A DNA stretch of 64,000 bases from Dielma fastidiosa (lineage in GTDB: Bacteria > Bacillota_I > Bacilli_A > Erysipelotrichales > Erysipelotrichaceae), in the NCBI RefSeq assembly GCF_000313565.1, contig NZ_HE578923.1, positions 295,619 through 359,618 of the forward strand, given 5' to 3'. The notes under the pieces were generated by a model. That model was given only the letters and a program-made list of their open reading frames with translations. It made no database searches and had not been told where the DNA came from. Position numbers and translations under genes: made by a program. Shown here in pieces: positions 2,977 through 51,597 of the stretch; position 1 is the stretch's first letter, and every line of letters begins with the position of its first letter.

Positions 2977-3005
2977 TTGGAAATTAATGGTAAAACTGAT
3001 ATAAT
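2977..3005 (+). promoter_or_regulatory. Sigma-A type promoter of the binding-protein/GGDEF operon
   Basis: TTGGAA (2977-2982) and TATAAT (3000-3005) with 17-bp spacing, followed by a CGGAGG ribosome site just before the ATG at 3029. Confidence 0.6.
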
Positions 3006-3028: not shown

Positions 3029-4465
3029 ATGAAAAAAATAGCTGCATTGCTTTGCGCCTGTCTGATCCTAGGCGGCTGTTCTTCGCAAAATCCATATGAG
3101 AAGGAACTGGACCCTAAAAATCCAATTACCTTAACCTTATGGCATTATTATAATGGTATCCAGAAAACAGCGCTTGATAATATGATTGAAGAGTTTAATA
3201 ATACAGTTGGTTCAGAGAAGGGAATTGTTGTCGAGGCAAATAATGTAGGCAGTATCCTTGAATTAACCGATAAAGTGAAAGAAGCGGCAGCCGGTAAAGT
3301 CGGCGCCTCTGAAATGCCGGAAATATTTACCGCATATGCAGATACCGCTTATGAATTAAATGCGGATGGCTATGTTGCTGATTTAAGTCAGTATCTAAGC
3401 GCGGATGAAATCAGCGAGTATGTAGATGGCTATGTGCAGGAAGGCATGTTTGATAACGAATTAAAGATTTTCCCGGCCGCGAAGGCTACGGAATGTCTGC
3501 AAATCAATAAAACGGACTGGGATCGTTTCGCAGAGGCAGCTGATGTCAGCCTGGATGATTTAAAGACTGTTGAAGGATTAAATGAAGTAGCTGAAAAATA
3601 TTATGCATATACTGACGCGCTTACGCCTGATATAAACAATGACGGAAAGCCTTTCTTTGGCCGTGATGCGGTAGCTAATTATTTTATTATCGGCTGCAAG
3701 CAATTAGGAATGGAAATCTTTGAGGTTAAAGACGGACAAGTTACACTGAATTTTGATAAGGATGTAATCAGAAAAATCTGGGATAATTATTATGTTCCTT
3801 ATGTAAAGGGCTATTATCTGGATAAGGGCCGTTTCCGCAGTGATGATGTGAAAACGGGGGATATTATTTCTTTCGTTGGTTCTACAAGCGGCATTCCTTA
3901 TTTTCCTACACAGGTAATCAAGGATGACAATACAAGTTATGATATCGATGTGATCTTCCAGCCGGTACCGGTATTTGAAGGCGGCAGTAAGGTTGCTGTT
4001 CAGCAGGGGGCTGGAATGGTTGTGTCAAAAACCAGTGAAGTCAAGGAGTATGCATCAGTTCTTTTCCTGAAATGGTTTACTGAAACTGAACGAAATATTG
4101 ATTTTACGATTAATTCAGCTTATCTGCCAGTGAAAAAGGAAGCCAATGATCTTGAAGTAATCCATACATTGATCAAAGAGAATGATATTGATATGGATGA
4201 TTCAATTTTAGCCGGTCTTGATGTAGCGATTAATACGGTTAATGATTATGAATTATTTACAAGTAAAGCCTTTGATCATGGCACTGAAGCCCGCTCGTTG
4301 CTGCAGGCCGCTTTGATTGATGATGCTAAAGCAGCCCGCCAGCAGGTGATTGAACTGATCAACTCAGGCTCATCCAGAGATGAAGCGCTAAATCAGCTGA
4401 TTAATGACCAAATTTTTGATGAATGGTATAGCAGGCTTAAAACGGAGTTAGAAAAGCTGATATAG
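3029..4465 (+). CDS. Extracellular solute-binding lipoprotein (ABC family 1-like)
   Basis: Membrane-anchored extracytoplasmic binding protein of 478 residues. The signal peptide ends in the lipobox LGGC, so Cys16 should be lipidated. After a short linker, ITLTLWHYYNGIQ is the usual beginning of a family-1 (MalE-like) binding fold. The ligand is unknown; sugars or peptides are typical for the family. No ABC permease or ATPase gene is adjacent. Instead the next gene, 13 bp downstream, is a membrane GGDEF-EAL protein, suggesting that this protein presents a ligand to a c-di-GMP sensor rather than to a transporter. Confidence 0.88.
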   Translation: MKKIAALLCACLILGGCSSQNPYEKELDPKNPITLTLWHYYNGIQKTALDNMIEEFNNTVGSEKGIVVEANNVGSILELTDKVKEAAAGKVGASEMPEIFTAYADTAYELNADGYVADLSQYLSADEISEYVDGYVQEGMFDNELKIFPAAKATECLQINKTDWDRFAEAADVSLDDLKTVEGLNEVAEKYYAYTDALTPDINNDGKPFFGRDAVANYFIIGCKQLGMEIFEVKDGQVTLNFDKDVIRKIWDNYYVPYVKGYYLDKGRFRSDDVKTGDIISFVGSTSGIPYFPTQVIKDDNTSYDIDVIFQPVPVFEGGSKVAVQQGAGMVVSKTSEVKEYASVLFLKWFTETERNIDFTINSAYLPVKKEANDLEVIHTLIKENDIDMDDSILAGLDVAINTVNDYELFTSKAFDHGTEARSLLQAALIDDAKAARQQVIELINSGSSRDEALNQLINDQIFDEWYSRLKTELEKLI

Positions 4466-4478
4466 GAAGGGTGCAGAT

Positions 4479-7436
4479 ATGCGGTTGAGAAAGTCGTCAA
4501 TTACTGACAGAACATTGTTGATGATGATAATAGTCGTACTGATTCAGTCAGTAATTTTTGCTGCGACCTTACTGAATGGTGATATTGTTGAGAAAACGAA
4601 TCAGAATGCTTTTGATACAATGAATGAAAAGGTAACCAACCGCCGTACCTATTTAGAAAATGACATGATTCAGCGCTGGAGCAATCTTGAATCTAAGTCA
4701 GTAATGATGACTGATAAAATCATCGCTTATCTTGATGAGCAGCAGTTAACCATTGATGAATTAGCGAAAAATACTTCAGCCGCAGTGCCGCTGATTGATG
4801 CTGTGAGTGAGGATATTATCAGTATCCTGCGAACCAATCAAGTAACCGGCGCATTTTTAATATTGGGCAATGACAACAGTGACAATGTCCAGACAAATGG
4901 TATCTATCTGCGGGATATGGATCCTATCGCTAACCCGAATGATAATTCAGATCTGCTTTGTCTGAGGGCTCCGGCCAGTATCACTGAAGGGTTAAATATC
5001 CCTTTAGATATTTATTGGAATCCTCAGTTTCAGTTTAATGAGGAGAATAAGAGTGATATCTTTTATTATCGCGTTTTATCAGTAGCGGCTCAAAATCTGC
5101 AGGCAGCGCATAAAGATCTGGGGTATTGGAGTTCGAGCGCCACGGACAGCAATGGTGTTGATGTCATACTGTATACACTGCCGCTCTTGGATCATGATGG
5201 CAACGTGCTCGGTATTCTTGGTGTTGATGTATCGCTTGATTATTTAAAGAGTCTGATGCCGTCCAAGGAATTAAACAGCAATGCTTCTTATCTGTTAGCT
5301 AAAATTACGAATCAAACTGCTCAATTGGAATATATCGCCGCCAGCGGGCCGCTGTATACGAATATTTTTCATAGTGAACCTACTGTCTCAATTCTTGATA
5401 AAACAAATTATATCAACGCGTTTGAATTTGAAACTGAGGAGAATAATCAGGTTTACGGCAATGTGCAATTGCTATCCTTATATAACACAAATTCACCATA
5501 TGCTGATGATTCATGGGTTTTAGTCGGCTTGATGCGCGGTCAGGATCTGAAATTTTTTACTAATGAATTATATAAATCGTGTCTGCTTGCCAGTCTGCTT
5601 TCATTTGCGGTATTATTTGGTGTTATCTTGGTATTAAGCCGTTCATTTACTCATCCGATTCGAAAATTGGCTAAAGAGGTTAAGAATTTTAATCCAAATG
5701 AACCAGTGAAACTAAATCCAACGAATATCCTCGAAATCGATAACCTAAGCAGTGCGATTGAAGAGCTGAGCCGTGATGTGGCAGAAACCGCCTCTTCCTT
5801 TGGCAGGATTATTTCGATGACCAGCTATCCATTCAGCGCTTTTGAATATTATACCGATCAGGAACGCTTCTTCTGTACTGATCAGCTATTGGCTACGATC
5901 GGCATTAGAGATGCCCAGCTGCAGATTAAGAATAAAGAAGATTTAATCTATCTGCTTGAGCTTTTGGATAAGCAATATCCGTCTACTCGTGTTGACAATC
6001 AGATTCGTATTTATCGAATTGCTGATGATATTGATCACAAACAGCGCTGGATACGCATGCATATCATGAAAGAAGCCAATCATATTTATGGTGTTGTAGA
6101 AAATGTAACCAGTGAAATGCTGGAGCTGCATAAGGCTGAATATGAGCGTGATCATGATGTGCTGACCAGCTTATTAAACCGCCGCGCATATACTGAAAAA
6201 ATGAATAAGTTATTTAAACAGCATGATCAGCTGAAAGTAGCGGCATTAGTCATGTCTGATTTAGATAATCTGAAATATATTAATGATACATTTGGTCATG
6301 ACTGCGGTGATGATTATATCCGCTTGATGGCTAATGTGCTGAAATCTTCTTATCCGCCTCAGCATTCTATTATCTCAAGAATTTCCGGTGATGAGTTCTT
6401 TGTATTCTTATATGGCTATGATTCAAAAGAAGAAATACAGAAAATACTCGGCGAGTTTGAGAAGAATATGAATGAATGTGTCTGGAAATTACCGGATGGC
6501 AGTTTTAGTAAGCTGCGGGCAACCACAGGTGTCGCGTGGTATCCGAATGATGCGATAGAGTTAACTTCATTGACGAAGTATGCGGATTTCGCAATGTATC
6601 GGATGAAGCATACTCAAAAGGGCAGTTTGTATTTCTTTGATCAGGAGGAATATGAAAATGACGCGTATCTGCTTCAGGCTAAGGAAGATTTGAATAAGCT
6701 GATTGATCAGGAAATGGTAGCTTATCAGTTCCAGCCAATCGTTGATGCTCATACAGGTGAGGTCTATGCGTATGAAGCGCTGATGCGTTCTAAATTAGCG
6801 GCCTTTATGAACCCTCTTGATATCTTGAGGATTGCCAGAGCGCAGTCGAAGCTTTATTTTATTGAACATCTGACTTTCTTTAAGGCGATGGAGGATTATG
6901 TAAAACAACCGGGTTATGAAAAGTATCGGCTGTTTATCAATACGATCGCAAATCAGGTTTTAACGGCAGAGGATATTGCGGAATTCAGCGCTAAATATTC
7001 AGATTATCTGCCTAATTTAGTGTTAGAAATTACAGAAGCGGAGAAGCTTGAGGATCGCCCGGCGAAAGAAAAGCGCCGTTTAGTCGATAAATGGCATGCG
7101 AAGATCGCGGTTGATGATTATGGAACCGGTTATAATGGTGAATCTGTCTTGCTGCAGGTTGAACCAGACTTTATTAAGATTGACCGTTCAATTGTGCATA
7201 ATATCAGTTTTGATGAGAATCGGCAGATTCTGCTTCAGAATATTATTTCATACTGCAAAGAAAATCATATTCTGATTATCGCAGAAGGAATTGAGAATGA
7301 GTTGGAGATGAAGACGCTGATTAATGCTGGTGTTGATTATATGCAGGGCTTCTATCTGGCTCAGCCTGCTTATGAATTGCAGGATATCAGTGAACAGAAG
7401 AAGCAGTTGATTCGTGAATATTATGAAACAAAATAA
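4479..7436 (+). CDS. Membrane c-di-GMP regulator: Cache sensor, PAS-like, GGDEF and EAL
   Basis: 985-residue bifunctional-looking cyclic-di-GMP enzyme. TM1 is at about residues 14-32. A large extracellular sensor follows (about 33-355, Cache-like, with LGVDVSLDYL typical of that fold), then TM2 at about 358-380, a HAMP-like linker and a PAS-like stretch. The GGDEF domain has DLDNLKYINDTFGHD and the signature SGDEF near residue 637, a variant often still active. The EAL domain keeps YEAL (about 764), LEITE, DDYGTGY (about 877), IKID and AEGIE, so phosphodiesterase activity is likely. It is co-transcribed with the upstream binding lipoprotein, and a terminator begins at its stop codon. Confidence 0.93.
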   Translation: MRLRKSSITDRTLLMMIIVVLIQSVIFAATLLNGDIVEKTNQNAFDTMNEKVTNRRTYLENDMIQRWSNLESKSVMMTDKIIAYLDEQQLTIDELAKNTSAAVPLIDAVSEDIISILRTNQVTGAFLILGNDNSDNVQTNGIYLRDMDPIANPNDNSDLLCLRAPASITEGLNIPLDIYWNPQFQFNEENKSDIFYYRVLSVAAQNLQAAHKDLGYWSSSATDSNGVDVILYTLPLLDHDGNVLGILGVDVSLDYLKSLMPSKELNSNASYLLAKITNQTAQLEYIAASGPLYTNIFHSEPTVSILDKTNYINAFEFETEENNQVYGNVQLLSLYNTNSPYADDSWVLVGLMRGQDLKFFTNELYKSCLLASLLSFAVLFGVILVLSRSFTHPIRKLAKEVKNFNPNEPVKLNPTNILEIDNLSSAIEELSRDVAETASSFGRIISMTSYPFSAFEYYTDQERFFCTDQLLATIGIRDAQLQIKNKEDLIYLLELLDKQYPSTRVDNQIRIYRIADDIDHKQRWIRMHIMKEANHIYGVVENVTSEMLELHKAEYERDHDVLTSLLNRRAYTEKMNKLFKQHDQLKVAALVMSDLDNLKYINDTFGHDCGDDYIRLMANVLKSSYPPQHSIISRISGDEFFVFLYGYDSKEEIQKILGEFEKNMNECVWKLPDGSFSKLRATTGVAWYPNDAIELTSLTKYADFAMYRMKHTQKGSLYFFDQEEYENDAYLLQAKEDLNKLIDQEMVAYQFQPIVDAHTGEVYAYEALMRSKLAAFMNPLDILRIARAQSKLYFIEHLTFFKAMEDYVKQPGYEKYRLFINTIANQVLTAEDIAEFSAKYSDYLPNLVLEITEAEKLEDRPAKEKRRLVDKWHAKIAVDDYGTGYNGESVLLQVEPDFIKIDRSIVHNISFDENRQILLQNIISYCKENHILIIAEGIENELEMKTLINAGVDYMQGFYLAQPAYELQDISEQKKQLIREYYETK

Positions 7437-7458
7437 ACCTCTGACGAGGTTTGTTTTT
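7435..7458 (+). terminator. Rho-independent terminator
   Basis: AAACCTC-TGAC-GAGGTTT hairpin followed by GTTTTT; it starts at the stop codon of the GGDEF-EAL gene and closes that operon. Confidence 0.8.
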
Positions 7459-7502
7459 GTATATGTACATTGTTTTGCTTATATGATTTATATTTTAAAT
7501 GA

Positions 7503-8385: not shown

Positions 8386-8874
8386 ATGGAAGAGAATAAA
8401 TTGCAGAAAGAATTATTTAAGTCAATCATGCGTGTGAATAAAGCGATGGGTAAACGCCATTCTGCTTTAGGTGATTTACCGCAGGGTACTTTTGTGCTGC
8501 TTCATACAATCCTTGAAAATGGCCATCAGCTGGAATTCATTACTGATGAAGAAATGATTGGAATGACAGTTTCTGATCTTAGTGAAATTTTGTTGGTTTC
8601 ACGTCCAGCTATCAGCCGTATGATCAATGAGCTTGAAAGGAAGGGATTCATTCAGCGTGTCAGCACATGCAGCGACCGCCGTCTGGTTTATGTATGCATT
8701 GCGCCTTTAGGTAAGGAAGCATTGCAGGCGGCATGGCATCGAGCTTATGAAGGCTTAAATGCATTGATTGAAAAAATGGGAGAACAAGATATTAAAGAAT
8801 TGATTCGCATTTTAAATAAACTGCATACCGTGGTTTATGAATTAGCGAATGATGAAAGATTAGAAAGGAATTGA
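8386..8874 (+). CDS. MarR family transcriptional regulator
   Basis: Winged-helix DNA-binding regulator of 162 residues. The helix-turn-helix is visible in VSDLSEILLVSRPAISRMINELERKGFI, followed by the wing with the typical SCSDRRL(V) motif. MarR proteins usually repress their own operon and release DNA on binding a ligand. The next gene starts at or just beyond its stop codon, and the two following genes form an ABC exporter, so its likely role is inducible control of that exporter. Ribosome site AGAGGTGG precedes the ATG. Confidence 0.92.
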   Translation: MEENKLQKELFKSIMRVNKAMGKRHSALGDLPQGTFVLLHTILENGHQLEFITDEEMIGMTVSDLSEILLVSRPAISRMINELERKGFIQRVSTCSDRRLVYVCIAPLGKEALQAAWHRAYEGLNALIEKMGEQDIKELIRILNKLHTVVYELANDERLERN

Positions 8875-8879
8875 TGCTT

Positions 8880-11108
8880 ATGATGAAACTAAAAAAGTTT
8901 TATAAGCCATTTTTAGTCAGTATGCTGGCAGCTGTTGTACTGCTGTTTGGTCAGGCAATGTGTGATTTAAAATTACCGGATACAATGTCTGATATTATCA
9001 ATGTCGGTATTCAGCAGAATGGTATTGAACACGCGTCACCAGATGTAATCAGTGAACAGGGCATGACGCTAATGACATTGTTCATGAGTGAGGATGAAAA
9101 GACCTCAGTGCTGGCTGCTTATGATTTTATTGAAAAAGGCAGTGATGAGACGATTGCCAAGCATTATGCGAATGCTGCCGATATGAATGTATATCAAATT
9201 AATGAACAAGGAAAAGATGAGCGGAATGCGCTGGATGCAGTCTTTGGCAATAGCTCATGGACCTTTATTAATGTGATGAAGCAAGTATCGGCAGAGTCTG
9301 CCCAAAGTGGTGTGGCTAATGCTGGTACGGATTTCTCAGTTACGGATTTAGATTTTAATCAGGTTTATGCGATGCTGCCAATGCTTCAGGCATTGCCTCA
9401 GGAAATGATTGATGAACAGCATGCCGCGGCGATGGCATTGCCGGAGACGACGAAAACGCAGACAAGCGCGGTATTTGTGAAGCTGTTTTATGAAGAATTA
9501 GGGGCTGACGCTCAGCAGATTCAATTTATGTATATATTGAAAAAAGGCGGCTTGATGCTGTTGGTAACATTGCTTGGTGCGATGGCTACGATTGCTGTAG
9601 GCTTATTAGCCAGCCGGATTGCTGCCGGTCTTGGCCGTGATTTGCGTAAGGCCATCTTTGAAAAGGTTGAAAGCTTCTCAAATGCTGAATTTGATAAATA
9701 TTCAACTTCTTCTTTGATTACTCGTACTACGAATGATATCACTCAGGTACAGACCTTGATTGTAATGGGCATCCGTATGATATTCTATGCCCCAATCATG
9801 GGTATCGGCGGTATTGTCATGATTTCTTCAAAGAATTTATCAATGGTATGGATTTTAGCATTATCAGTTGCGGCTTTGCTGTGTCTGATTGGCTTTATCT
9901 TTGTGGTAGCAATGCCTAAGTTCAATATCATGCAGAAGCTGCTGGATAAGCTGAATCTCGTTTCTCGTGAGAATCTGACCGGTCAGCTTGTTATTCGTGC
10001 TTTTGGTTCTCAAGAGTTTGAAAAAGAACGCTTTGATAAAGCAAATAAGGATTTAACCAAGAACAGCTTATTTGTTCAGCGGGTTATGGCGATGATGATG
10101 CCATGTATGAATATCATCATGAACTTTACAACATTGCTGATTGTTTGGGTCGGCGCGCATCAGATTGCTGCCAGTAATATGCAGGTTGGTGATATGATGG
10201 CGTTTATGCAATATGGTATCCAGATTATCATGTCATTCTTAATGATCAGTATGATTTTCATTCTGATTCCAAGAGCGACAGTATCAGCAAATCGTATTTA
10301 TGAAGTATTATCAACCCAGCCTTCAATTGTTGATCCTGAAACAGAAGCAGAATTTAAGCAGGATCAAATGGGTGTTGTTGAGTTTGATAACGTCAGCTTC
10401 CACTATGCAGGGGCTGAAAAGGATGTATTGGAGAATGTATCCTTTGTCGCTAAACCGGGACAGACAACCGCATTTATCGGTTCGACAGGTTCAGGAAAAT
10501 CAACATTAATTAATCTGATTCCGCGTTTCTATGATGTAACTGACGGCTGTATTAAGGTCAATGGTACGGATATCCGTAATATTTCTCAGCATCGTCTGCA
10601 TGAACAGGTAGGCTATGTACCGCAAAAGGGTGTTCTGCTCTCAGGTACGATTGATTCCAATCTGCGTTACGGACGCCCTGATGCAAGTGATGAGGAAATC
10701 AGAGAAGCGGCGGCGGTGGCGCAAGCTACTGATTTTATTGAAAAGAAGGAAGACGGCTTTAATGCATTGATCGCCCAAGGCGGTACAAATGTATCAGGCG
10801 GTCAGAAACAGCGTTTATCAATTGCCCGCGCTTTAGCGACAAAGGCACCGATTTTAATCTTTGATGATTCTTTTTCAGCTCTTGATTTTAAAACGGATGC
10901 TACATTGCGGGCAGCTTTACACGAGCACACAAGTGACGCGACAGTATTGATTGTGGCTCAGCGTGTATCAACCATCATGCATGCAGATCAGATTTTAGTT
11001 CTGGATCATGGTAAGGTAGTCGGCAAAGGCACGCATGAAGAATTGTTGAAGAATTGCCCGACATATTATGAAATCGCGTCTTCACAATTGTCAAAGGAGG
11101 AATTGTAA
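8880..11108 (+). CDS. ABC exporter half with degenerate ATPase site and large extracytoplasmic insert
   Basis: Type IV ABC exporter subunit (membrane domain plus ATPase) of about 742 residues, longer than the usual 580. The excess is an insert of about 180 hydrophilic residues between TM1 and TM2 (roughly residues 35-215), on the outside. The ATPase part has Walker A GSTGSGKST and a canonical signature SGGQ. Walker B ends FDDSFSALD (catalytic Glu replaced by Asp) and the switch His is Gln (VAQRVST). These are marks of the degenerate half of a heterodimeric exporter. I favour the ATG at 8880 because GGAA lies 9 bp upstream; in-frame TTG/ATG codons at 8871 and 8874 are too close to it. The substrate is unknown. 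Confidence 0.9.
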   Translation: MMKLKKFYKPFLVSMLAAVVLLFGQAMCDLKLPDTMSDIINVGIQQNGIEHASPDVISEQGMTLMTLFMSEDEKTSVLAAYDFIEKGSDETIAKHYANAADMNVYQINEQGKDERNALDAVFGNSSWTFINVMKQVSAESAQSGVANAGTDFSVTDLDFNQVYAMLPMLQALPQEMIDEQHAAAMALPETTKTQTSAVFVKLFYEELGADAQQIQFMYILKKGGLMLLVTLLGAMATIAVGLLASRIAAGLGRDLRKAIFEKVESFSNAEFDKYSTSSLITRTTNDITQVQTLIVMGIRMIFYAPIMGIGGIVMISSKNLSMVWILALSVAALLCLIGFIFVVAMPKFNIMQKLLDKLNLVSRENLTGQLVIRAFGSQEFEKERFDKANKDLTKNSLFVQRVMAMMMPCMNIIMNFTTLLIVWVGAHQIAASNMQVGDMMAFMQYGIQIIMSFLMISMIFILIPRATVSANRIYEVLSTQPSIVDPETEAEFKQDQMGVVEFDNVSFHYAGAEKDVLENVSFVAKPGQTTAFIGSTGSGKSTLINLIPRFYDVTDGCIKVNGTDIRNISQHRLHEQVGYVPQKGVLLSGTIDSNLRYGRPDASDEEIREAAAVAQATDFIEKKEDGFNALIAQGGTNVSGGQKQRLSIARALATKAPILIFDDSFSALDFKTDATLRAALHEHTSDATVLIVAQRVSTIMHADQILVLDHGKVVGKGTHEELLKNCPTYYEIASSQLSKEEL

Positions 11109-11109
11109 T

Positions 11110-12978
11110 ATGGCAAACTCCAGACCTGCAGGTGCAATGGGCGGCAGAGGGCCAATGGGCGGCGGTCATGGTCCGATGCGCGGTACTGTTGTGAAAGCAA
11201 AGGATTTTAAAGGTTCAATTAAAAAGCTATTACGCTATTTGAAGCCATATGCGCTTCAGCTGATTGTAGTTGTTATTTTCGCGATTGCTTCTACGGTATT
11301 TATGATTTTAGGGCCTAGTATTTTAGGTAATATCACTACATTGATTTATGAAGGCTTAATGAATATTATCGGCGGCACCGGTATGGGCATTGATTTTGAT
11401 GCGATTCTTAAAATTATTTGTCTGCTGATTGGCTTGTATTTAGCGAGTGCATTGTTTACATTTATTCAAAGCTGGATTATGAGCGGTGTAATCATGAAGC
11501 TTGGTTACAGCTTACGAAAAGATATTGAAGATAAGATGCATAAGCTGCCATTAAATTATTATGACACACGAAATTATGGTGAAATTTTAAGTCATATCAC
11601 CAATGATGTAGATACGCTGGTAAACAGTCTGAATCAGAGTATTACCCAGGTAATCACATCTGTGACAAATGTTGTCGGTATGCTGATTATGATGCTTTTA
11701 ATCAGCTGGAAGATGTCGGTAATTGCTATTTTGGTACTGCCGCTTTCATTAATCTTGGTATTGTTTGTGGTTAAGCATACACAGAAGTATTTCCGCAGAC
11801 AGCAGGAATATTTAGGTCATGTGAATGGACATATAGAAGAAATGTATGGCAGTCATTTGATCGTAAAGGCATTTAATGGTGAAGCAGACAGTGTCGCACA
11901 GTTCAATGATTTAAATAATCAGCTGTATGATGCTGGCTGGAAAGCTCAGTTTTCAAGCTCACTGATGATGCCAATCATGAATTTTATCAATAATATCGCT
12001 TATGTTATCGTTTGTATCATGGGTGGTTATTATGCCTCCATCGGTGTGATTACGGTTGGTAATATTCAATCATTCATTCAGTATATGAAGCAGTCTACAC
12101 AGCAGGTACAGCAGGTAGCTAATATCTCGAACGTACTCCAGCAGACAGCGGCGGCAGCTGAGCGTGTGTTTGAATATCTTGAAGAAGCGGAAGAAGAGCC
12201 AGATACTGAATATCCGGTACCGGTGGATGATATTAAGGGTGAGGTTATTTTTGCGCATGTGCATTTTGGCTATAACCCTGAACAGATTATTATTAATGAT
12301 TTTACAGCGAAGGTTGAACCAGGGCAGAAAGTCGCGATCGTAGGGCCTACAGGTGCCGGCAAGACGACCATGATTAAATTGCTGATGCGTTTTTATGATG
12401 TCACACAGGGAGCCATCTGTATTGATGGCTTAGACTTGAAGCAATTCAGAAGAAATGATCTGCGTTCATTATTCGGCATGGTGCTGCAGGATACATGGCT
12501 GTATAATGCATCAATCAAGGATAATATCCGTTATGGTAAGCAGAATGCCAGTGATGAGGAAGTCATTGAGGCGGCAAAAGCGGCACAGGTCGATCACTTT
12601 GTTCGTACTTTACCTGATGGCTATGATATGGTTTTAAATGAAGAAGCCAGTAATATTTCACAGGGACAGAAGCAGCTGCTGACCATAGCGCGTGCGATTC
12701 TCTGTGATCCAAAGATTTTGATTTTGGATGAAGCTACATCATCAGTTGATACGCGTACTGAAATTTTGATTCAGAAAGCGATGGATAATCTGATGAGAGG
12801 CAGAACAAGCTTTATTATTGCTCACCGTCTGTCAACCATTAAGGATGCAGACATGATTCTGTGCATGGATCATGGTGATATTGTGGAGAAAGGAACTCAT
12901 GAGGAGCTGCTTGCTAAGGGTGGTTTCTATGCGAATCTGTATAATTCACAATTCTCTGATGGTGAGGAAGAGGAATAG
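11110..12978 (+). CDS. ABC exporter half with canonical ATPase site
   Basis: Partner subunit of 622 residues: a short Gly/Met-rich cytoplasmic leader, six membrane segments, then an ATPase. Walker A is GPTGAGKTT, Walker B is LDEATSSVD with catalytic Glu, and the switch His is present (IAHRLST), but the signature reads ISQGQ rather than LSGGQ. Combined with the preceding subunit, this gives one competent and one degenerate nucleotide site, as in TM287/288 or BmrCD type exporters. The ATG at 11110 follows AAAGGAGG and lies 1 bp beyond the previous stop. The product is probably exported in response to the MarR ligand. Confidence 0.92.
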   Translation: MANSRPAGAMGGRGPMGGGHGPMRGTVVKAKDFKGSIKKLLRYLKPYALQLIVVVIFAIASTVFMILGPSILGNITTLIYEGLMNIIGGTGMGIDFDAILKIICLLIGLYLASALFTFIQSWIMSGVIMKLGYSLRKDIEDKMHKLPLNYYDTRNYGEILSHITNDVDTLVNSLNQSITQVITSVTNVVGMLIMMLLISWKMSVIAILVLPLSLILVLFVVKHTQKYFRRQQEYLGHVNGHIEEMYGSHLIVKAFNGEADSVAQFNDLNNQLYDAGWKAQFSSSLMMPIMNFINNIAYVIVCIMGGYYASIGVITVGNIQSFIQYMKQSTQQVQQVANISNVLQQTAAAAERVFEYLEEAEEEPDTEYPVPVDDIKGEVIFAHVHFGYNPEQIIINDFTAKVEPGQKVAIVGPTGAGKTTMIKLLMRFYDVTQGAICIDGLDLKQFRRNDLRSLFGMVLQDTWLYNASIKDNIRYGKQNASDEEVIEAAKAAQVDHFVRTLPDGYDMVLNEEASNISQGQKQLLTIARAILCDPKILILDEATSSVDTRTEILIQKAMDNLMRGRTSFIIAHRLSTIKDADMILCMDHGDIVEKGTHEELLAKGGFYANLYNSQFSDGEEEE

Positions 12979-46466: not shown

Positions 46467-49400
46467 AATGTTCACGATAATTATGACTCGTATCAAACAG
46501 ACTGGCGGCCACCGGCCGGCTGTAATAATAGCCCTGAATGTAAGTGCATCCCAATTCAGCTAAGATCGCAACCTGCTCCTTGATTTCTACACCCTCGGCT
46601 ACATTATAGATATCCATCTTTTTACAAAGTGCGATGATGCACTCAAGAATCCAGCGGGCATTCTCATTTTGTACGAGATAGTCGACTAAACCTTTATCAA
46701 ATTTTAAGGTATCAAATTTAAGATCGGAAATGATGGAAAGATTACTATACTTAGCTCCAAAATCATCAAGGGCCAGCCGATAACCGGCAGCTTTGATTTC
46801 CTGTCCGATTTTGATAATTGTATTTCTTTCAATTTCTCCCATGTTTTCTGTAATCTCTATCTCAATCAAATCACGGTCAATGCCATATTTCTGATTGATC
46901 TGATTCATCCGCTCTACCAGCTTATCACCCAATAAGGTAACCCTTGAGAAATTAAGTGAGATCGGAATTAATTCAATGCCCTTCTGCCGCCACATTGCCA
47001 ACAGCTTATGAACTTCTTCAAAAATAAAGAAATCAACGTAGAAGATCAAGCCGGTATTTTCTAAATAAGGAATAAACTTATCCGGTCCGACAAGCCCATG
47101 CGGCTGATCCTGATAGCGAATCAAGGCTTCAGCACCTACCACATGACCATTGGCACTGTTAACCTTTTGCTGAAGGTACATTTTTAAATACTGCATCTCT
47201 ACAGCCTGCATCAGCCTGTGATGCTCCTGTGTCCGTTCATCGTTTTTGTTCAGTAATGCATATTCGCCATAATGAATCTGTTTATCCATCGTGCGCTGAT
47301 CAACAGCACTGTTAATCAAATTATATAATGAAATTTGCTTTTCGGCCCATGCAAAGCCAATCGCTACACTGCAGATTGAATTTGCGTCATTTTTTACTGC
47401 CGCGCTCATTTCAATGAAACGCTCATAAGTAATATTCTCAAAGATAACTAAGAATTCATCACTGTCATAGCGATAAATATGCTCACAGCCAGTATTACTT
47501 AAAGCGGCTGCCAGCTCGGTGATGAGCGCGTCGCCATATGCCATGCCATATTGTTTATTTAAGTCTTTTAAACCATTGATATCAAGGGTAATTACACCTA
47601 AAGAAATTAATGCATCGACATTCAAATCCTTGCTGTACTGGAAAAAACTCATCCGGTTTTTAACCTTTGTCAAAGGATCAAAAGCCTGATAGTATTCGTT
47701 CTCCTCCTGAAAGCGCAAGAGATGCTGTTCATGAACCATGATAAAGAGAATCGCATGTAAAAACGCCAGCTGATCCTTATACTGTTTGACATTATCAATG
47801 CCGATAACGGCAATTAATTCATGATTTTCAATCATTGGTACCATTAAGGACGGATACTCATGATTAGCTGGCAGCGAATCTGTGTCACGTAATTCCTCAA
47901 GCTGCTTAAACTTAAGTAAAGCTCCCTCCTTATGCAAAGCGGCCCACTGTTTGATTTTATCAGCATTTAGTTTAAGCTGACTGTCATGTTCACAGGTAAC
48001 ATCAGTATTGACTGTAAGCTGATCGTGAATAACATCATATAAATAGGCTCTGTCGCCTTGATACAGCTTGCGTATTTCACCTAATATCTCCTGCATATTG
48101 ATCGGCAATGCGGAAGAATAATGCAGATGATTGATAAATTCTGTCAAATCAATCTGCGTCTTTTCAGATGAGACAGGCACTTCATTCATCAAATCATTTG
48201 AACCTTCAATATAGATATTCTGTGACATATCCTGCATCGCTTTTTTAGCACGGCTGTAAAGCTCATCAAATGATTTTGACGTCTGATCGATAACGGCTCC
48301 AAAAAGGATATTAATCGGCTCCTGAATCCCTGGGATGATTGAATACATCCGCATCGACTGTTTAATTTCATTGATATAGCGAAGAATGCTTTCTTCATCA
48401 AAATTACTGTATATAAATACAGCAAACTCACCGGCATATAATTTACCAACCAGCTTATTTTTAGAGAAGCAAAGCAGCAGATGGCTTGCCAGCTCCTTCA
48501 ATACTTTACTGATATTATCCTGTGTATCCGCATTAAAATTATTGGAATCGACATGGAAAAGCAAGAGTGCAAAAGGCTCATGATAAGGCGGTGCTTCAAA
48601 CAGAATTCTTTCAATCATCGCGATTAACGTCTCTTTTGAATAGACATTGGTTAAAGGATCTCTTTCAATATTTTGGTGAATCATATTTTCCAATGTCTTA
48701 TTGGCATCGATATTCTGCAGGACACCCAGCATATGCAGATCATTGCCGTTGCCGTCTAAGAATATCTTGCTTAATGCACGCACCCAAGACAGATTGCCGT
48801 TTAAATCCTTGCGGCGGTAATCACAGAAAATGAAATTCTCACCGTGTGAGTAGGCGCTGATAACCGCTTCCTTGCTGAGAACATTCTGTACTCTCAACAC
48901 ATCTTCCTGACTGGCAGAGAATACTTTCTGCAGCTCCAGCACATCATCATAGGTCAGGATTTCATAGTCATGAACCGCAATGCCTTCAATTGTATCAATC
49001 CGGTTCTTGGTAATATTGCCTTGGAAGGAGGCAATCAGATCTTTGTTTTGAATAACTTGGTAAAATAATTCCTTTTGATAATGCAGCTGAGTCTCTTTCT
49101 GTTTCGTTACATCTTCACCTATCGCAACCGCAAGTTCAGGCTGTCCGTCCTGATCATAAATCATATGGTAATTGATGCGTTCCCACCACCAGCTTTTGCC
49201 GTCTTTATCTCTGGTTAAGACATCAGCCTGAATCTGCTTGATGCCTTCATCCAGTTTTTGATAGAGCTGACGAACGATGGGAATGCTCATCGGATGAATG
49301 ATGCCTTTTTCAATTAATGTTTCAGGCATATTTCCTTCCGCAACATTCAGCGAATGCTTTTCTACAGCACTTTCAGTCAGAAATAAGGCTTTTTCTTTCA

Positions 49401-51597
49401 CATTATATTCCCAGACGTTAACGTGTGATTTCTGAAGGGCGGTGCGGTATAAGAATTCTTTATGTTCAAGCTGCATCAGCTTTTCTTTAATTTCGGTAAA
49501 TTCAGTGTACCACAGGATGATAAACGGCTGATCCTTGATTATTTGGCCTTCTGCTTTTACCCATATGGAATGCTTATCTTTACCGATTATTTGATATACA
49601 GCGTTATATTTGCCATCGTTTTTTGCTTTGGTTAAGGCTTGATAAGCAAGAGCTTGATGCTCTGGCGCAATCATATCGATAAAACTGCCGGTGCTGCTGT
49701 GCAGATACTGTGATTCATTTTCATAGCCAAGCATCTTCAGCAGCTTATTACTGATGGCTTTCAGCTGCGGCTGATCCGTTTCAAGACTGTATATACATGC
49801 TGGGAAATCGTCAAAATCAGCTGTAGGAACAACCTCTTGCCTGCTGCTGTGAGAAAGCTTTTTCAAAAGGATTGTTGAAATCAGTTCGCAGATCAATTGA
49901 ATGGTGTATTTAGATTCTTCTGTCACATCACGGGTTGCATGACAGTCCTCGATGCAAATGATTAATTGACTGCCGGCTGTCTTAGATAAAACCGCTGCCA
50001 GCGCCTGCCGCTGCTTCAGCCATGTTTTGATTGCTGATGCGTCAACGGTTTCTACATTATCATAAAAATAGATACCGCCCTGTTCATCAAACAGTGTTTC
50101 AATTATTGATGAATCGGAATCAGTGATTTCATATTCAGCCAAACGGTACCACGCATAGATTCGCTGCCGCGCCGCATAAATGGAAATCCTGTCGCAGTTG
50201 AAAACATTACCCAAATAATTTAAAAGTTCAGGAATGAGATCGCTGTGCTCAGGCTGTTTCATGATTAAATCAAGAATATATTCAATGCATTGATCACGGA
50301 ATGTTTTCTTCATGATTTTTTGCGGTGCATTAAAGAAATAATGGTTTTCCTTATACATCACAAACTGCTGCTTGCCATTCTTTTTAGCCTCATACATGGC
50401 CGCGTCAGCTTTATCAAACAGGGAAAGGAAGTCTTCGCCGTGAAGCGGATAAGCGCTTGCACCTACACTGAAGCCTAGATCGATATGATAATCAGCATAG
50501 AACTGCTGCTGGATATTGGTTTGGAATGCTAAGATTTTATTACTTAATGCTTCCTGGGTATAGGGCATCGTCGTACAGATAATGAACTCATCACCGCCGT
50601 ATCGGCCAATAATCTGATCATGAAAAGCAAGCTTCAGACTTTCCGCGACTTTATATAATACATGATCTCCCTCTAAATGACCCAGATTATCATTGATATC
50701 CTTAAAATCATCAAGATCGATCAGAATCAGCGTGAAGGCCTGTTTATCTGCCAACAGCGTATCAAACTGCTTCAAAAAGCCGCGCCGGTTGTAAAGGCCA
50801 CTCAACGCATCAAAATCAGCTTCTTTCATCGATGTTAAAATGGCCTGTTTCGTTTCATTGATATCGGTAATGATTCCAATCATATTCAAGAGGTTGCCTT
50901 GCTCATCACGGATGGCCGTCGCTTTTACCTCGACCCAGTGATAACCCTGATTGCGGTATTTTAAGCGATACTCACACTGCATTGAATTGCTGCCATTGCG
51001 CAGAGACTGAAAAGCGTTAAACAACTTATCCTTATCTTCTTCATAAATGATATCACCGGCAAACATTGAAGCGGGGAAATTATCCAGCGGGACTTTATAG
51101 CCAAATGCTTTTTCATAATTGTCAGAGTAATAGACATGGTTATTTTTCACATCCATTTCAAAAATGACATCCTGAGTCTGAGAGATGATGACTTGGAATC
51201 TTTTTTCACTTATTATTAAATTTTCATAAGCATTCTTATCCTTAGTGGTGTCATGAAAGATACAGTGAAAATAAGGACGGCTCCCCTTCATTATCTGCGC
51301 GCTGATCCAAATCCACTTTAGCTGGCCGTCTTTACATACCAGTCGGTTTTCATACATAAAAACATGTCCTTTTTTCAACTGGACATTTATTTCATTCATA
51401 ATGCTGCTGCGTTCAGTCTCATAAATAACATCCATTAAATGATCCTGAAAACGCTCATAGAATTCCTGACGCGTATAGCCAAGCAGCTGAAACAGTGAAT
51501 CGTCTGCGGATAGCAATGTAAAATGTTCATCAAATAAACATTCAAACACTCCCCCAAGAGATGGATCGATAAGTTTATTGCTCATTATTCCATCCAT
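46465..51597 (-). CDS. Giant cytosolic PAS/GAF-like, triple GGDEF, EAL protein (1710 residues)
   Basis: Multi-sensor c-di-GMP protein without clear membrane segments. Order: two PAS domains (about 15-260), a GGDEF domain with intact GGDEF near residue 332, a GAF/PAS-rich stretch, a second GGDEF-fold domain with YAGEF near 1055, a GAF-like stretch, a third with YDSDEF near 1380, and a C-terminal EAL domain (AEALIRYQ near 1489, IEITE, LDDFGAKYS, LKFDKG, AEGVE). Only the first cyclase site looks competent. EAL is nearly complete, but loop 6 reads DDFGAKYS instead of DDFGTGYS. MDG start at 51597 after AAGGGG. Confidence 0.92.
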   Translation of the reverse strand: MDGIMSNKLIDPSLGGVFECLFDEHFTLLSADDSLFQLLGYTRQEFYERFQDHLMDVIYETERSSIMNEINVQLKKGHVFMYENRLVCKDGQLKWIWISAQIMKGSRPYFHCIFHDTTKDKNAYENLIISEKRFQVIISQTQDVIFEMDVKNNHVYYSDNYEKAFGYKVPLDNFPASMFAGDIIYEEDKDKLFNAFQSLRNGSNSMQCEYRLKYRNQGYHWVEVKATAIRDEQGNLLNMIGIITDINETKQAILTSMKEADFDALSGLYNRRGFLKQFDTLLADKQAFTLILIDLDDFKDINDNLGHLEGDHVLYKVAESLKLAFHDQIIGRYGGDEFIICTTMPYTQEALSNKILAFQTNIQQQFYADYHIDLGFSVGASAYPLHGEDFLSLFDKADAAMYEAKKNGKQQFVMYKENHYFFNAPQKIMKKTFRDQCIEYILDLIMKQPEHSDLIPELLNYLGNVFNCDRISIYAARQRIYAWYRLAEYEITDSDSSIIETLFDEQGGIYFYDNVETVDASAIKTWLKQRQALAAVLSKTAGSQLIICIEDCHATRDVTEESKYTIQLICELISTILLKKLSHSSRQEVVPTADFDDFPACIYSLETDQPQLKAISNKLLKMLGYENESQYLHSSTGSFIDMIAPEHQALAYQALTKAKNDGKYNAVYQIIGKDKHSIWVKAEGQIIKDQPFIILWYTEFTEIKEKLMQLEHKEFLYRTALQKSHVNVWEYNVKEKALFLTESAVEKHSLNVAEGNMPETLIEKGIIHPMSIPIVRQLYQKLDEGIKQIQADVLTRDKDGKSWWWERINYHMIYDQDGQPELAVAIGEDVTKQKETQLHYQKELFYQVIQNKDLIASFQGNITKNRIDTIEGIAVHDYEILTYDDVLELQKVFSASQEDVLRVQNVLSKEAVISAYSHGENFIFCDYRRKDLNGNLSWVRALSKIFLDGNGNDLHMLGVLQNIDANKTLENMIHQNIERDPLTNVYSKETLIAMIERILFEAPPYHEPFALLLFHVDSNNFNADTQDNISKVLKELASHLLLCFSKNKLVGKLYAGEFAVFIYSNFDEESILRYINEIKQSMRMYSIIPGIQEPINILFGAVIDQTSKSFDELYSRAKKAMQDMSQNIYIEGSNDLMNEVPVSSEKTQIDLTEFINHLHYSSALPINMQEILGEIRKLYQGDRAYLYDVIHDQLTVNTDVTCEHDSQLKLNADKIKQWAALHKEGALLKFKQLEELRDTDSLPANHEYPSLMVPMIENHELIAVIGIDNVKQYKDQLAFLHAILFIMVHEQHLLRFQEENEYYQAFDPLTKVKNRMSFFQYSKDLNVDALISLGVITLDINGLKDLNKQYGMAYGDALITELAAALSNTGCEHIYRYDSDEFLVIFENITYERFIEMSAAVKNDANSICSVAIGFAWAEKQISLYNLINSAVDQRTMDKQIHYGEYALLNKNDERTQEHHRLMQAVEMQYLKMYLQQKVNSANGHVVGAEALIRYQDQPHGLVGPDKFIPYLENTGLIFYVDFFIFEEVHKLLAMWRQKGIELIPISLNFSRVTLLGDKLVERMNQINQKYGIDRDLIEIEITENMGEIERNTIIKIGQEIKAAGYRLALDDFGAKYSNLSIISDLKFDTLKFDKGLVDYLVQNENARWILECIIALCKKMDIYNVAEGVEIKEQVAILAELGCTYIQGYYYSRPVAASLFDTSHNYREH

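What the first reader, a model, noticed from the sequence alone, without database searches (positions are those of the whole stretch)
3029..7436. Binding lipoprotein paired with a Cache-GGDEF-EAL protein, no transporter
The two genes share a promoter and terminator and are 13 bp apart, and no ABC permease is present. This suggests that a ligand captured outside by the lipoprotein is sensed by the 320-residue outer domain to set c-di-GMP levels, a direct solute-to-second-messenger circuit in a Gram-positive.
Basis: partly seen in the sequence, partly recalled or inferred. Interest (0 to 1): 0.5.

Follow-up and report, generated by a model that had tools for sequence, protein, structure and literature searches.

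The report
Lipoprotein-receptor pair with interchangeable output
A surface lipoprotein that looks built to capture a sugar-like molecule is encoded, in the close relatives whose next gene could be read, directly before a membrane receptor instead of a transporter, and related receptors carry different inner parts (c-di-GMP enzymes, kinases or DNA-binding domains), which points to a dedicated chemical sensor of gut bacteria.

Summary
In detail: a 478-aa SBP_bac_8 lipoprotein (3029-4465) and a 985-aa Cache-GGDEF-EAL receptor (4479-7436), 13 bp apart, with a plausible promoter, a good terminator and no importer permease. Comparison shows more. Of 74 SBP loci found in a collection of 84,980 species genomes, 62 are of this kind with a readable next gene, and in 62 of 62 that gene is a receptor with the same outer domain. 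No sugar-permease motif occurs in 644 ORFs around them. In 294 genomes of the window's order, 16 have the SBP, 16 of 16 beside the receptor; two further receptors lack it. The outer domain is modelled as a double Cache (Z 19). Outputs differ: GGDEF-EAL 25, histidine kinase 16, LuxR-type 20, unclear 2. The GGDEF signature is intact in 25 of 25 GGDEF-EAL members. Best reading: the loaded lipoprotein docks on the Cache domain and switches the output, as in NspS-MbaA. Ligand, docking and sign of the response are inferred. The mechanism class is known; ten searches of open-access papers found no account of this Gram-positive family.

The parts
2977..3005 (+). promoter-like site TTGGAA-17-TATAAT with TG before the second hexamer, in the 68-bp gap upstream of the lipoprotein gene
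   Evidence: site density is at chance level, so suggestive only
3029..4465 (+). solute-binding lipoprotein, 478 aa, SBP_bac_8
   Evidence: model pLDDT 95.3; Z 31 to 35 to UgpB/oligosaccharide/dinucleotide-binding SBPs
3068..3079 (+). lipobox LGGC, Cys17 to be acylated
   Evidence: read from the translation; a script rule found a lipobox in 53 of 62 relatives
4464..4471 (+). ribosome-binding-like AGGAAGGG before the receptor start
   Evidence: read directly
4479..7436 (+). receptor, 985 aa: TM - double Cache - TM - linker - GGDEF - EAL
4578..5552 (+). extracellular domain (residues about 34-358), double-Cache fold, shared by the paired receptors
   Evidence: homology across 62 loci
6150..6620 (+). 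GGDEF domain (residues 558-714), motif SGDEF
6684..7367 (+). EAL domain (residues 736-963), catalytic residues present
7428..7460 (+). terminator hairpin with T-rich 3' side
   Evidence: -13.7 kcal/mol, z -4.61

Best explanation
The lipoprotein is the dedicated sensing subunit of the receptor encoded 13 bp downstream, not the binding protein of a transporter. It binds a small molecule (probably an oligosaccharide or another polar compound of the UgpB/maltose-binding class) outside the membrane, then docks on the receptor's double-Cache domain. This shifts the dimeric receptor between diguanylate-cyclase and phosphodiesterase states and so sets c-di-GMP. Shown: gene pairing, absence of an importer nearby, folds by prediction, intact active-site residues, conserved pairing with three alternative outputs. 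Inferred: ligand binding, docking, dimer, direction of the response, transcription as one unit.
For: 62 of 62 evaluable relatives have the same receptor type next downstream on the same strand, median 46.5 bp from SBP stop to start of receptor homology, range -23 to 361. In 294 genomes of the order 16 have the SBP and 18 the receptor domain, 16 of 16 SBPs adjacent (hypergeometric 1.6e-24, which ignores shared ancestry). No permease motif in 644 ORFs around the 62 pairs. In this genome 5 of 6 SBP_bac_8 hits have permease hits within about 3 kb, this one none. SBP and receptor-domain distances correlate, r 0.934, and 35 of 60 tree splits are shared. GGDEF signature intact in 25 of 25; EAL residues nearly so. 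The R-x-W pattern of dCache domains that bind amino acids or AI-2 directly is absent in 63 of 63 by a sequence pattern. Precedents seen in passages: NspS-MbaA (PMC8967002) and CuaD-CuaS (PMC10384115).
Against: No physical interaction, ligand or c-di-GMP measurement. The distance correlation is largely expected from linkage and shared descent. Two receptors of this kind (G012, G020) have no matching SBP, so the domain can occur without it. In one of the 62 loci (L090) the SBP frame is broken by a stop. 19 of the 29 permease hits of the genome are not near an SBP_bac_8 hit and only two of these (C11) were looked at, so a distant importer is not excluded. Neither of the c-di-GMP effector kinds sought was found (0 PilZ; riboswitch searches uninformative). 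The 35 GGDEF hits in the genome could make this one redundant.
Confidence: 0.72

Rival explanations
1. The double-Cache domain binds its own small ligand directly, as many dCache receptors do; the lipoprotein is an accessory that only concentrates ligand or tunes sensitivity.
For: The fold is that of directly binding chemoreceptor domains. Two receptors of the family lack the SBP. PMC12503165 passages say some dCache domains without the full motif still bind AI-2.
Against: R-x-W pattern absent in 63 of 63. The SBP is more conserved than the receptor domain (mean column identity 50% of 50 rows vs 34% of 54 rows), and none of the 62 readable loci or 16 genomes has it away from the receptor.
Confidence: 0.13
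2. The lipoprotein is an orphan binding protein of an ABC importer encoded elsewhere, and the receptor is a neighbour that regulates unrelated behaviour.
For: SBP_bac_8 proteins usually serve importers (general knowledge); the genome has 29 BPD_transp_1 hits, 19 of them not near an SBP_bac_8 hit, of which 17 were not inspected.
Against: 62 of 62 relatives in Bacillota, Actinomycetota and Spirochaetota keep the receptor, with no permease motif nearby. The other five SBP_bac_8 hits have permeases of their own. The two C11 permease hits sit in a locus that reads as phosphate import (by eye, recalled identification).
Confidence: 0.06
3. The lipoprotein senses something other than a free solute, such as a cell-wall or host polysaccharide or envelope state, or it acts on the receptor in its empty form.
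For: Many of the top structural relatives bind oligosaccharides; in NspS-MbaA a fitted model suggests that empty NspS can also act on the receptor (PMC8967002 passages). Many record titles name gut or rumen samples.
Against: Nothing here points to an envelope ligand; neighbouring genes of the Lachnospiraceae GGDEF-EAL class look like housekeeping genes (by eye).
Confidence: 0.09

Closest known systems
NspS-MbaA of Vibrio cholerae (passages of PMC8967002 seen)
   Same: Extracytoplasmic solute-binding protein controls a transmembrane GGDEF-EAL receptor; MbaA also has SGDEF.
   Different: Gram-negative periplasm and polyamine ligand; here a lipoprotein in a Gram-positive family, an SBP matching UgpB/maltose-type structures best, and relatives with kinase or LuxR output. 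Sequences not compared.
XylFII-LytS and CuaD-CuaS(-CuaR) of clostridia (passages of PMC10384115 seen)
   Same: Gram-positive solute-binding protein (CuaD a predicted lipoprotein) encoded with a sensor whose outer domain it binds.
   Different: Output is a histidine kinase, and the Cua sensor genes lie beside an ABC operon. Whether the outer domains share a fold with this one was not examined.
ScrB-ScrC of Vibrio parahaemolyticus (recalled; only a reference title seen)
   Same: SBP-linked GGDEF-EAL receptor.
   Different: Gram-negative, quorum-sensing operon; not compared by sequence.
dCache receptors for amino acids or AI-2, e.g. PctA (PMC12503165 passages)
   Same: Fold of the outer domain.
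   Different: R-x-W binding pattern absent; a dedicated lipoprotein partner is present.

Membership tests
SBP-controlled GGDEF-EAL receptor (NspS-MbaA kind) | SBP gene directly beside the receptor gene | tested here: met
   13 bp in the window; 62 of 62 evaluable relatives
SBP-controlled GGDEF-EAL receptor (NspS-MbaA kind) | transmembrane receptor with extracytoplasmic domain and both GGDEF and EAL with catalytic residues | tested here: met
   window intact; GGDEF signature 25 of 25; among the EAL columns one member has D880R, one R770H, two have E936 changed, two have L or M for A767
SBP-controlled GGDEF-EAL receptor (NspS-MbaA kind) | SBP binds receptor and its ligand switches DGC/PDE activity | not testable with these tools
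   needs protein; no complex prediction was offered
SBP-controlled GGDEF-EAL receptor (NspS-MbaA kind) | PotD-type polyamine-binding SBP | tested here: inconclusive
   PDB profile search at E 0.001 lists 25 sequences named UgpB, UspB, maltose-, sugar- or oligosaccharide-binding and the like, no polyamine binder by name; no direct comparison with NspS
Three-component SBP-histidine kinase system (XylFII-LytS, CuaDSR) | histidine-kinase output | tested here: not met
   window output is GGDEF-EAL; 16 of 63 pairs do have a kinase
ABC importer (SBP_bac_8 with BPD_transp_1 permeases) | permease genes beside the SBP | tested here: not met
   none on contig C1; 0 of 644 ORFs in 62 loci by motif; the motif was found beside distant SBPs L096, L097, L102
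dCache_1 double Cache domain | fold and Pfam profile | tested here: inconclusive
   fold matches (Z 19.4) but Pfam score 22.6 is below the cut-off 45
AI-2/amino-acid-binding dCache | R126 and W128 of PctA (R-x-W) | tested here: not met
   0 of 63 with R.W[YFW] in residues 90-260 of the receptor segment; sequence pattern, not a structure alignment; other motif residues not tested

The most novel reading that the evidence does not exclude
One conserved lipoprotein-Cache input module, reading the same or a closely related extracellular cue, is shared across Bacillota, Actinomycetota and Spirochaetota of the gut, and evolution has exchanged only the inner output: c-di-GMP turnover, phosphorelay, or direct DNA binding by a membrane-tethered LuxR-type domain. 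The lipoprotein stays better conserved than its receptor because the cue stays the same.
Probability: 0.35. Interest if true: 0.75.

Novelty: new variant of a known kind. Interest (0 to 1): 0.56.

Why it matters
Few signals that control c-di-GMP in Gram-positive gut bacteria are known (general knowledge). Here the receptor brings its own candidate ligand catcher, a soluble protein on which ligands can be screened directly, with relatives in cultured genera such as Faecalibacterium and Blautia (GGDEF-EAL class) and Hungatella (kinase class). Because the same input module is joined to three output types, it also offers a natural set of domain swaps for asking how a Cache domain passes a signal inward. 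It gives a likely function to proteins that would otherwise be called sugar ABC transporter binding proteins.

Tried and rejected
Considered and rejected: plain ABC importer part (no permease); chance neighbours (62 of 62 and 16 of 16 pairing); a c-di-GMP-only device (three outputs). Tried without result: downstream effectors, PilZ 0 hits with 5 of 14 control genomes ringing, c-di-GMP-II and c-di-GMP-I riboswitches 0 hits but no control rang either, so uninformative. Sequence search of solved structures with the receptor domain gave only weak hits (best E 0.034), most to ion channels through the first helix, some to chemoreceptor and kinase sensor domains. A phylum-wide sample of 392 genomes gave six receptors, all already seen in the order sample. 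Ligand prediction: the top fold matches (dinucleotide-, glycerophosphodiester- and oligosaccharide-binding proteins) are close in Z and do not decide; neighbouring genes gave no hint. NspS, MbaA, LuxPQ and ScrBC were not compared by sequence. LuxPQ's domain was not in the 50 rows shown, which excludes nothing. Literature: ten searches listed no paper whose title or abstract describes this family; the library holds open-access PMC papers only, and only passages of six papers were seen. A review of SBPs in signalling that I tried by DOI is not held.

Rows left out: of 74 loci, 12 are not counted as pairs: L051 (contig ends 83 aa into the receptor), L068 and L084 (contig ends inside the SBP), L094 (deletion remnant), L095-L102 (distant SBPs). 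The next gene was taken as the first + strand frame of at least 150 aa starting between 450 bp before and 1500 bp after the SBP end; in L079 an overlapping 159-aa frame was passed over for the receptor frame. Alignments A2 and A3 used 50 and 54 of the 63 pairs. Some pairs are near-copies (L088/L089, L077/L078, L060/L061). Output class was set by phmmer against one example of each domain, checked by Pfam on 10 proteins. Three receptors (G070, G180, G196) have no output class because they were not read.
Full report
What is in the window. ORFs 3029-4465 (478 aa) and 4479-7436 (985 aa) lie on the + strand 13 bp apart. The first has a signal peptide with lipobox LGGC (read) and matches SBP_bac_8 (E 3.4e-31); the second matches GGDEF (4.5e-28) and EAL (9.1e-44), with a sub-threshold dCache_1 match (22.6 bits, cut-off 45). 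Upstream on the same strand are an M20 peptidase and a CpsB/CapC-like gene. A promoter-like site sits in the gap at 2977-3005, although such sites are at chance density in the region. A terminator hairpin follows at 7428-7460. The structure model of the receptor's first 441 residues (pLDDT 90.8) has helices at 8-33 and 359-402 around a domain that matches double-Cache ligand-binding domains (Z 19.4, 3.8 A over 248 residues to 9hvj). The lipoprotein model (pLDDT 95.3) matches SBPs for oligosaccharides, glycerophosphodiesters and dinucleotides with Z of 31 to 35.

Pairing in other genomes. The lipoprotein profile scanned against a collection with one genome for each of 84,980 species gave 74 loci. 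In 62 the SBP is of this kind and the next gene could be read; in 62 of 62 the next gene on the same strand carries the same receptor domain. The other 12: three end at a contig edge (one of them, L051, 83 aa into the receptor), one is a deletion remnant (L094), eight are distant SBPs. In one of the 62, L090, the SBP frame is broken by a stop. Median distance from SBP stop to receptor homology is 46.5 bp. Record titles and the tree listing place them in Lachnospiraceae, Oscillospiraceae (Faecalibacterium), Coprobacillaceae, Coriobacteriaceae and relatives, and Spirochaetota, among others. In a sample of 294 genomes of the window's order, the SBP (E up to 1e-60) is in 16 and the receptor domain (E up to 1e-15) in 18; 16 of 16 SBPs are next to the receptor, and two receptors (G012, G020) stand alone. 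Thirteen of the 16 pairs, the window's included, were also read as sequence; G070, G180 and G196 were judged from coordinates only. So the pair is rare in the order (16 of 294) but stays together where it occurs.

No transporter. A motif for sugar-type permeases was found in 0 of 644 ORFs around the 62 pairs (flanks of up to 8 kb, shorter where contigs end); the same motif rings beside the distant SBPs of L096, L097 and L102. In the window's genome SBP_bac_8 has six hits; five lie within about 3 kb of BPD_transp_1 hits, and the window's lipoprotein lies on a 609-kb contig with none. Of the 29 permease hits, 19 are not near an SBP_bac_8 hit; the two on C11 sit in a locus that reads as phosphate import (by eye, recalled identification) and the other 17 were not inspected, so a distant importer is unlikely but not excluded. 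Exporter-type ABC genes lie downstream in the window (8871-12978, by eye).

Interchangeable outputs. Of 63 pairs (62 plus the window), 25 receptors end in GGDEF-EAL, 16 in a histidine kinase (15 with a receiver domain; L042 ends at its contig edge), 20 in a LuxR-type GerE domain, and 2 are cut or unclear (L032, L075) (Pfam on ten examples). In the GGDEF-EAL class the GDEF residues and the metal-binding residues are intact in 25 of 25; of the EAL columns checked, one member has D880R, one R770H, two have E936 changed and two have L or M for A767. Several kinase-class receptors have an extra GGDEF-like domain; in the 11 proteins aligned (10 of the kinase class and L032) its motif departs from [GSA]GDEF in 11 of 11. 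On the SBP tree, built without any output sequence, a starred branch separates 42 rows (GGDEF-EAL, kinase and L032) from the LuxR class, and the three outputs need 4 changes (3 on the receptor-domain tree; the least possible for three states is 2). So outputs were exchanged a few times, not often. Both trees are quick searches with some long branches, and the window's own place is unsure.

Co-evolution. SBP and receptor-domain distances correlate at r 0.934, and 0.93 to 0.96 within each class; the best of 2000 shuffles reached 0.11. Linked genes with shared history would show much of this anyway, so it is consistent with interaction and does not prove it. The SBP is better conserved than the receptor domain (mean column identity 50% of 50 rows against 34% of 54 rows).

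Mechanism. The best reading is an SBP-controlled receptor: lipoprotein plus ligand docks on the double Cache and shifts the output between states. In NspS-MbaA, norspermidine-loaded NspS is thought to associate with MbaA and favour cyclase activity, and without that association MbaA acts as phosphodiesterase (passages of PMC8967002); CuaD binds the outer domain of kinase CuaS in a two-hybrid assay, with or without its sugar (passages of PMC10384115). The R-x-W pattern of dCache domains that bind AI-2 (residues named in passages of PMC12503165; also recalled for amino acids) is absent in 63 of 63, which weakens direct binding but does not exclude it. Ligand, docking and sign of response are inferred.

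Novelty. The SBP-receptor mechanism is known and described as general and widespread, c-di-GMP receptors included (passages of PMC9602780). A review of c-di-GMP sensing states that of the PBP-clan domains found in GGDEF, EAL or HD-GYP proteins only SBP_bac_3 had been studied (PMC8846402, section 10). Ten searches of the open-access library listed no account of this family. I rate it a new variant of a known kind: without transporter genes, lipoprotein-based, in Gram-positive bacteria, with three outputs. That the window's organism is Gram-positive is inferred from kinship: G010, of the same family, has a contig of the same length as a record titled Erysipelotrichaceae.

Noticed in passing
window 47389-50820 (minus strand): Three separate GGDEF matches (121.5, 55.4 and 33.9 bits), all reported with an open frame of 1717 aa, so probably one protein with three GGDEF-like domains (converted coordinates).
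   Followed up: no
L026 10791-12848 and upstream of L086, L088, L089, L090, L092: LuxR-output pairs often have divergent small zinc-ribbon-like genes upstream (one such cluster in 5 loci; by eye), possible targets of the regulator.
   Followed up: no
L082, L085, L086, L088, L089, L090, L092, directly after the receptor: A gene of about 84 aa that looks like an XRE-type HTH protein (by eye) ends 215-311 bp after the LuxR-output receptor in 7 loci.
   Followed up: no
L094 7923-10054 (Fusicatenibacter saccharivorans): Remnant in which the start of the lipoprotein gene runs into the GGDEF-EAL end of the receptor, with the SBP end and Cache domain missing: parts of both partners lost together.
   Followed up: partly
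L027 6683-9667 (G012) and L028 115-3051 (G020): Receptors with the same outer domain and GGDEF-EAL but no matching lipoprotein gene; further GGDEF or EAL genes lie beside them.
   Followed up: partly
whole genome G000: 35 GGDEF matches but no PilZ match; the c-di-GMP effectors of this organism are unclear.
   Followed up: partly
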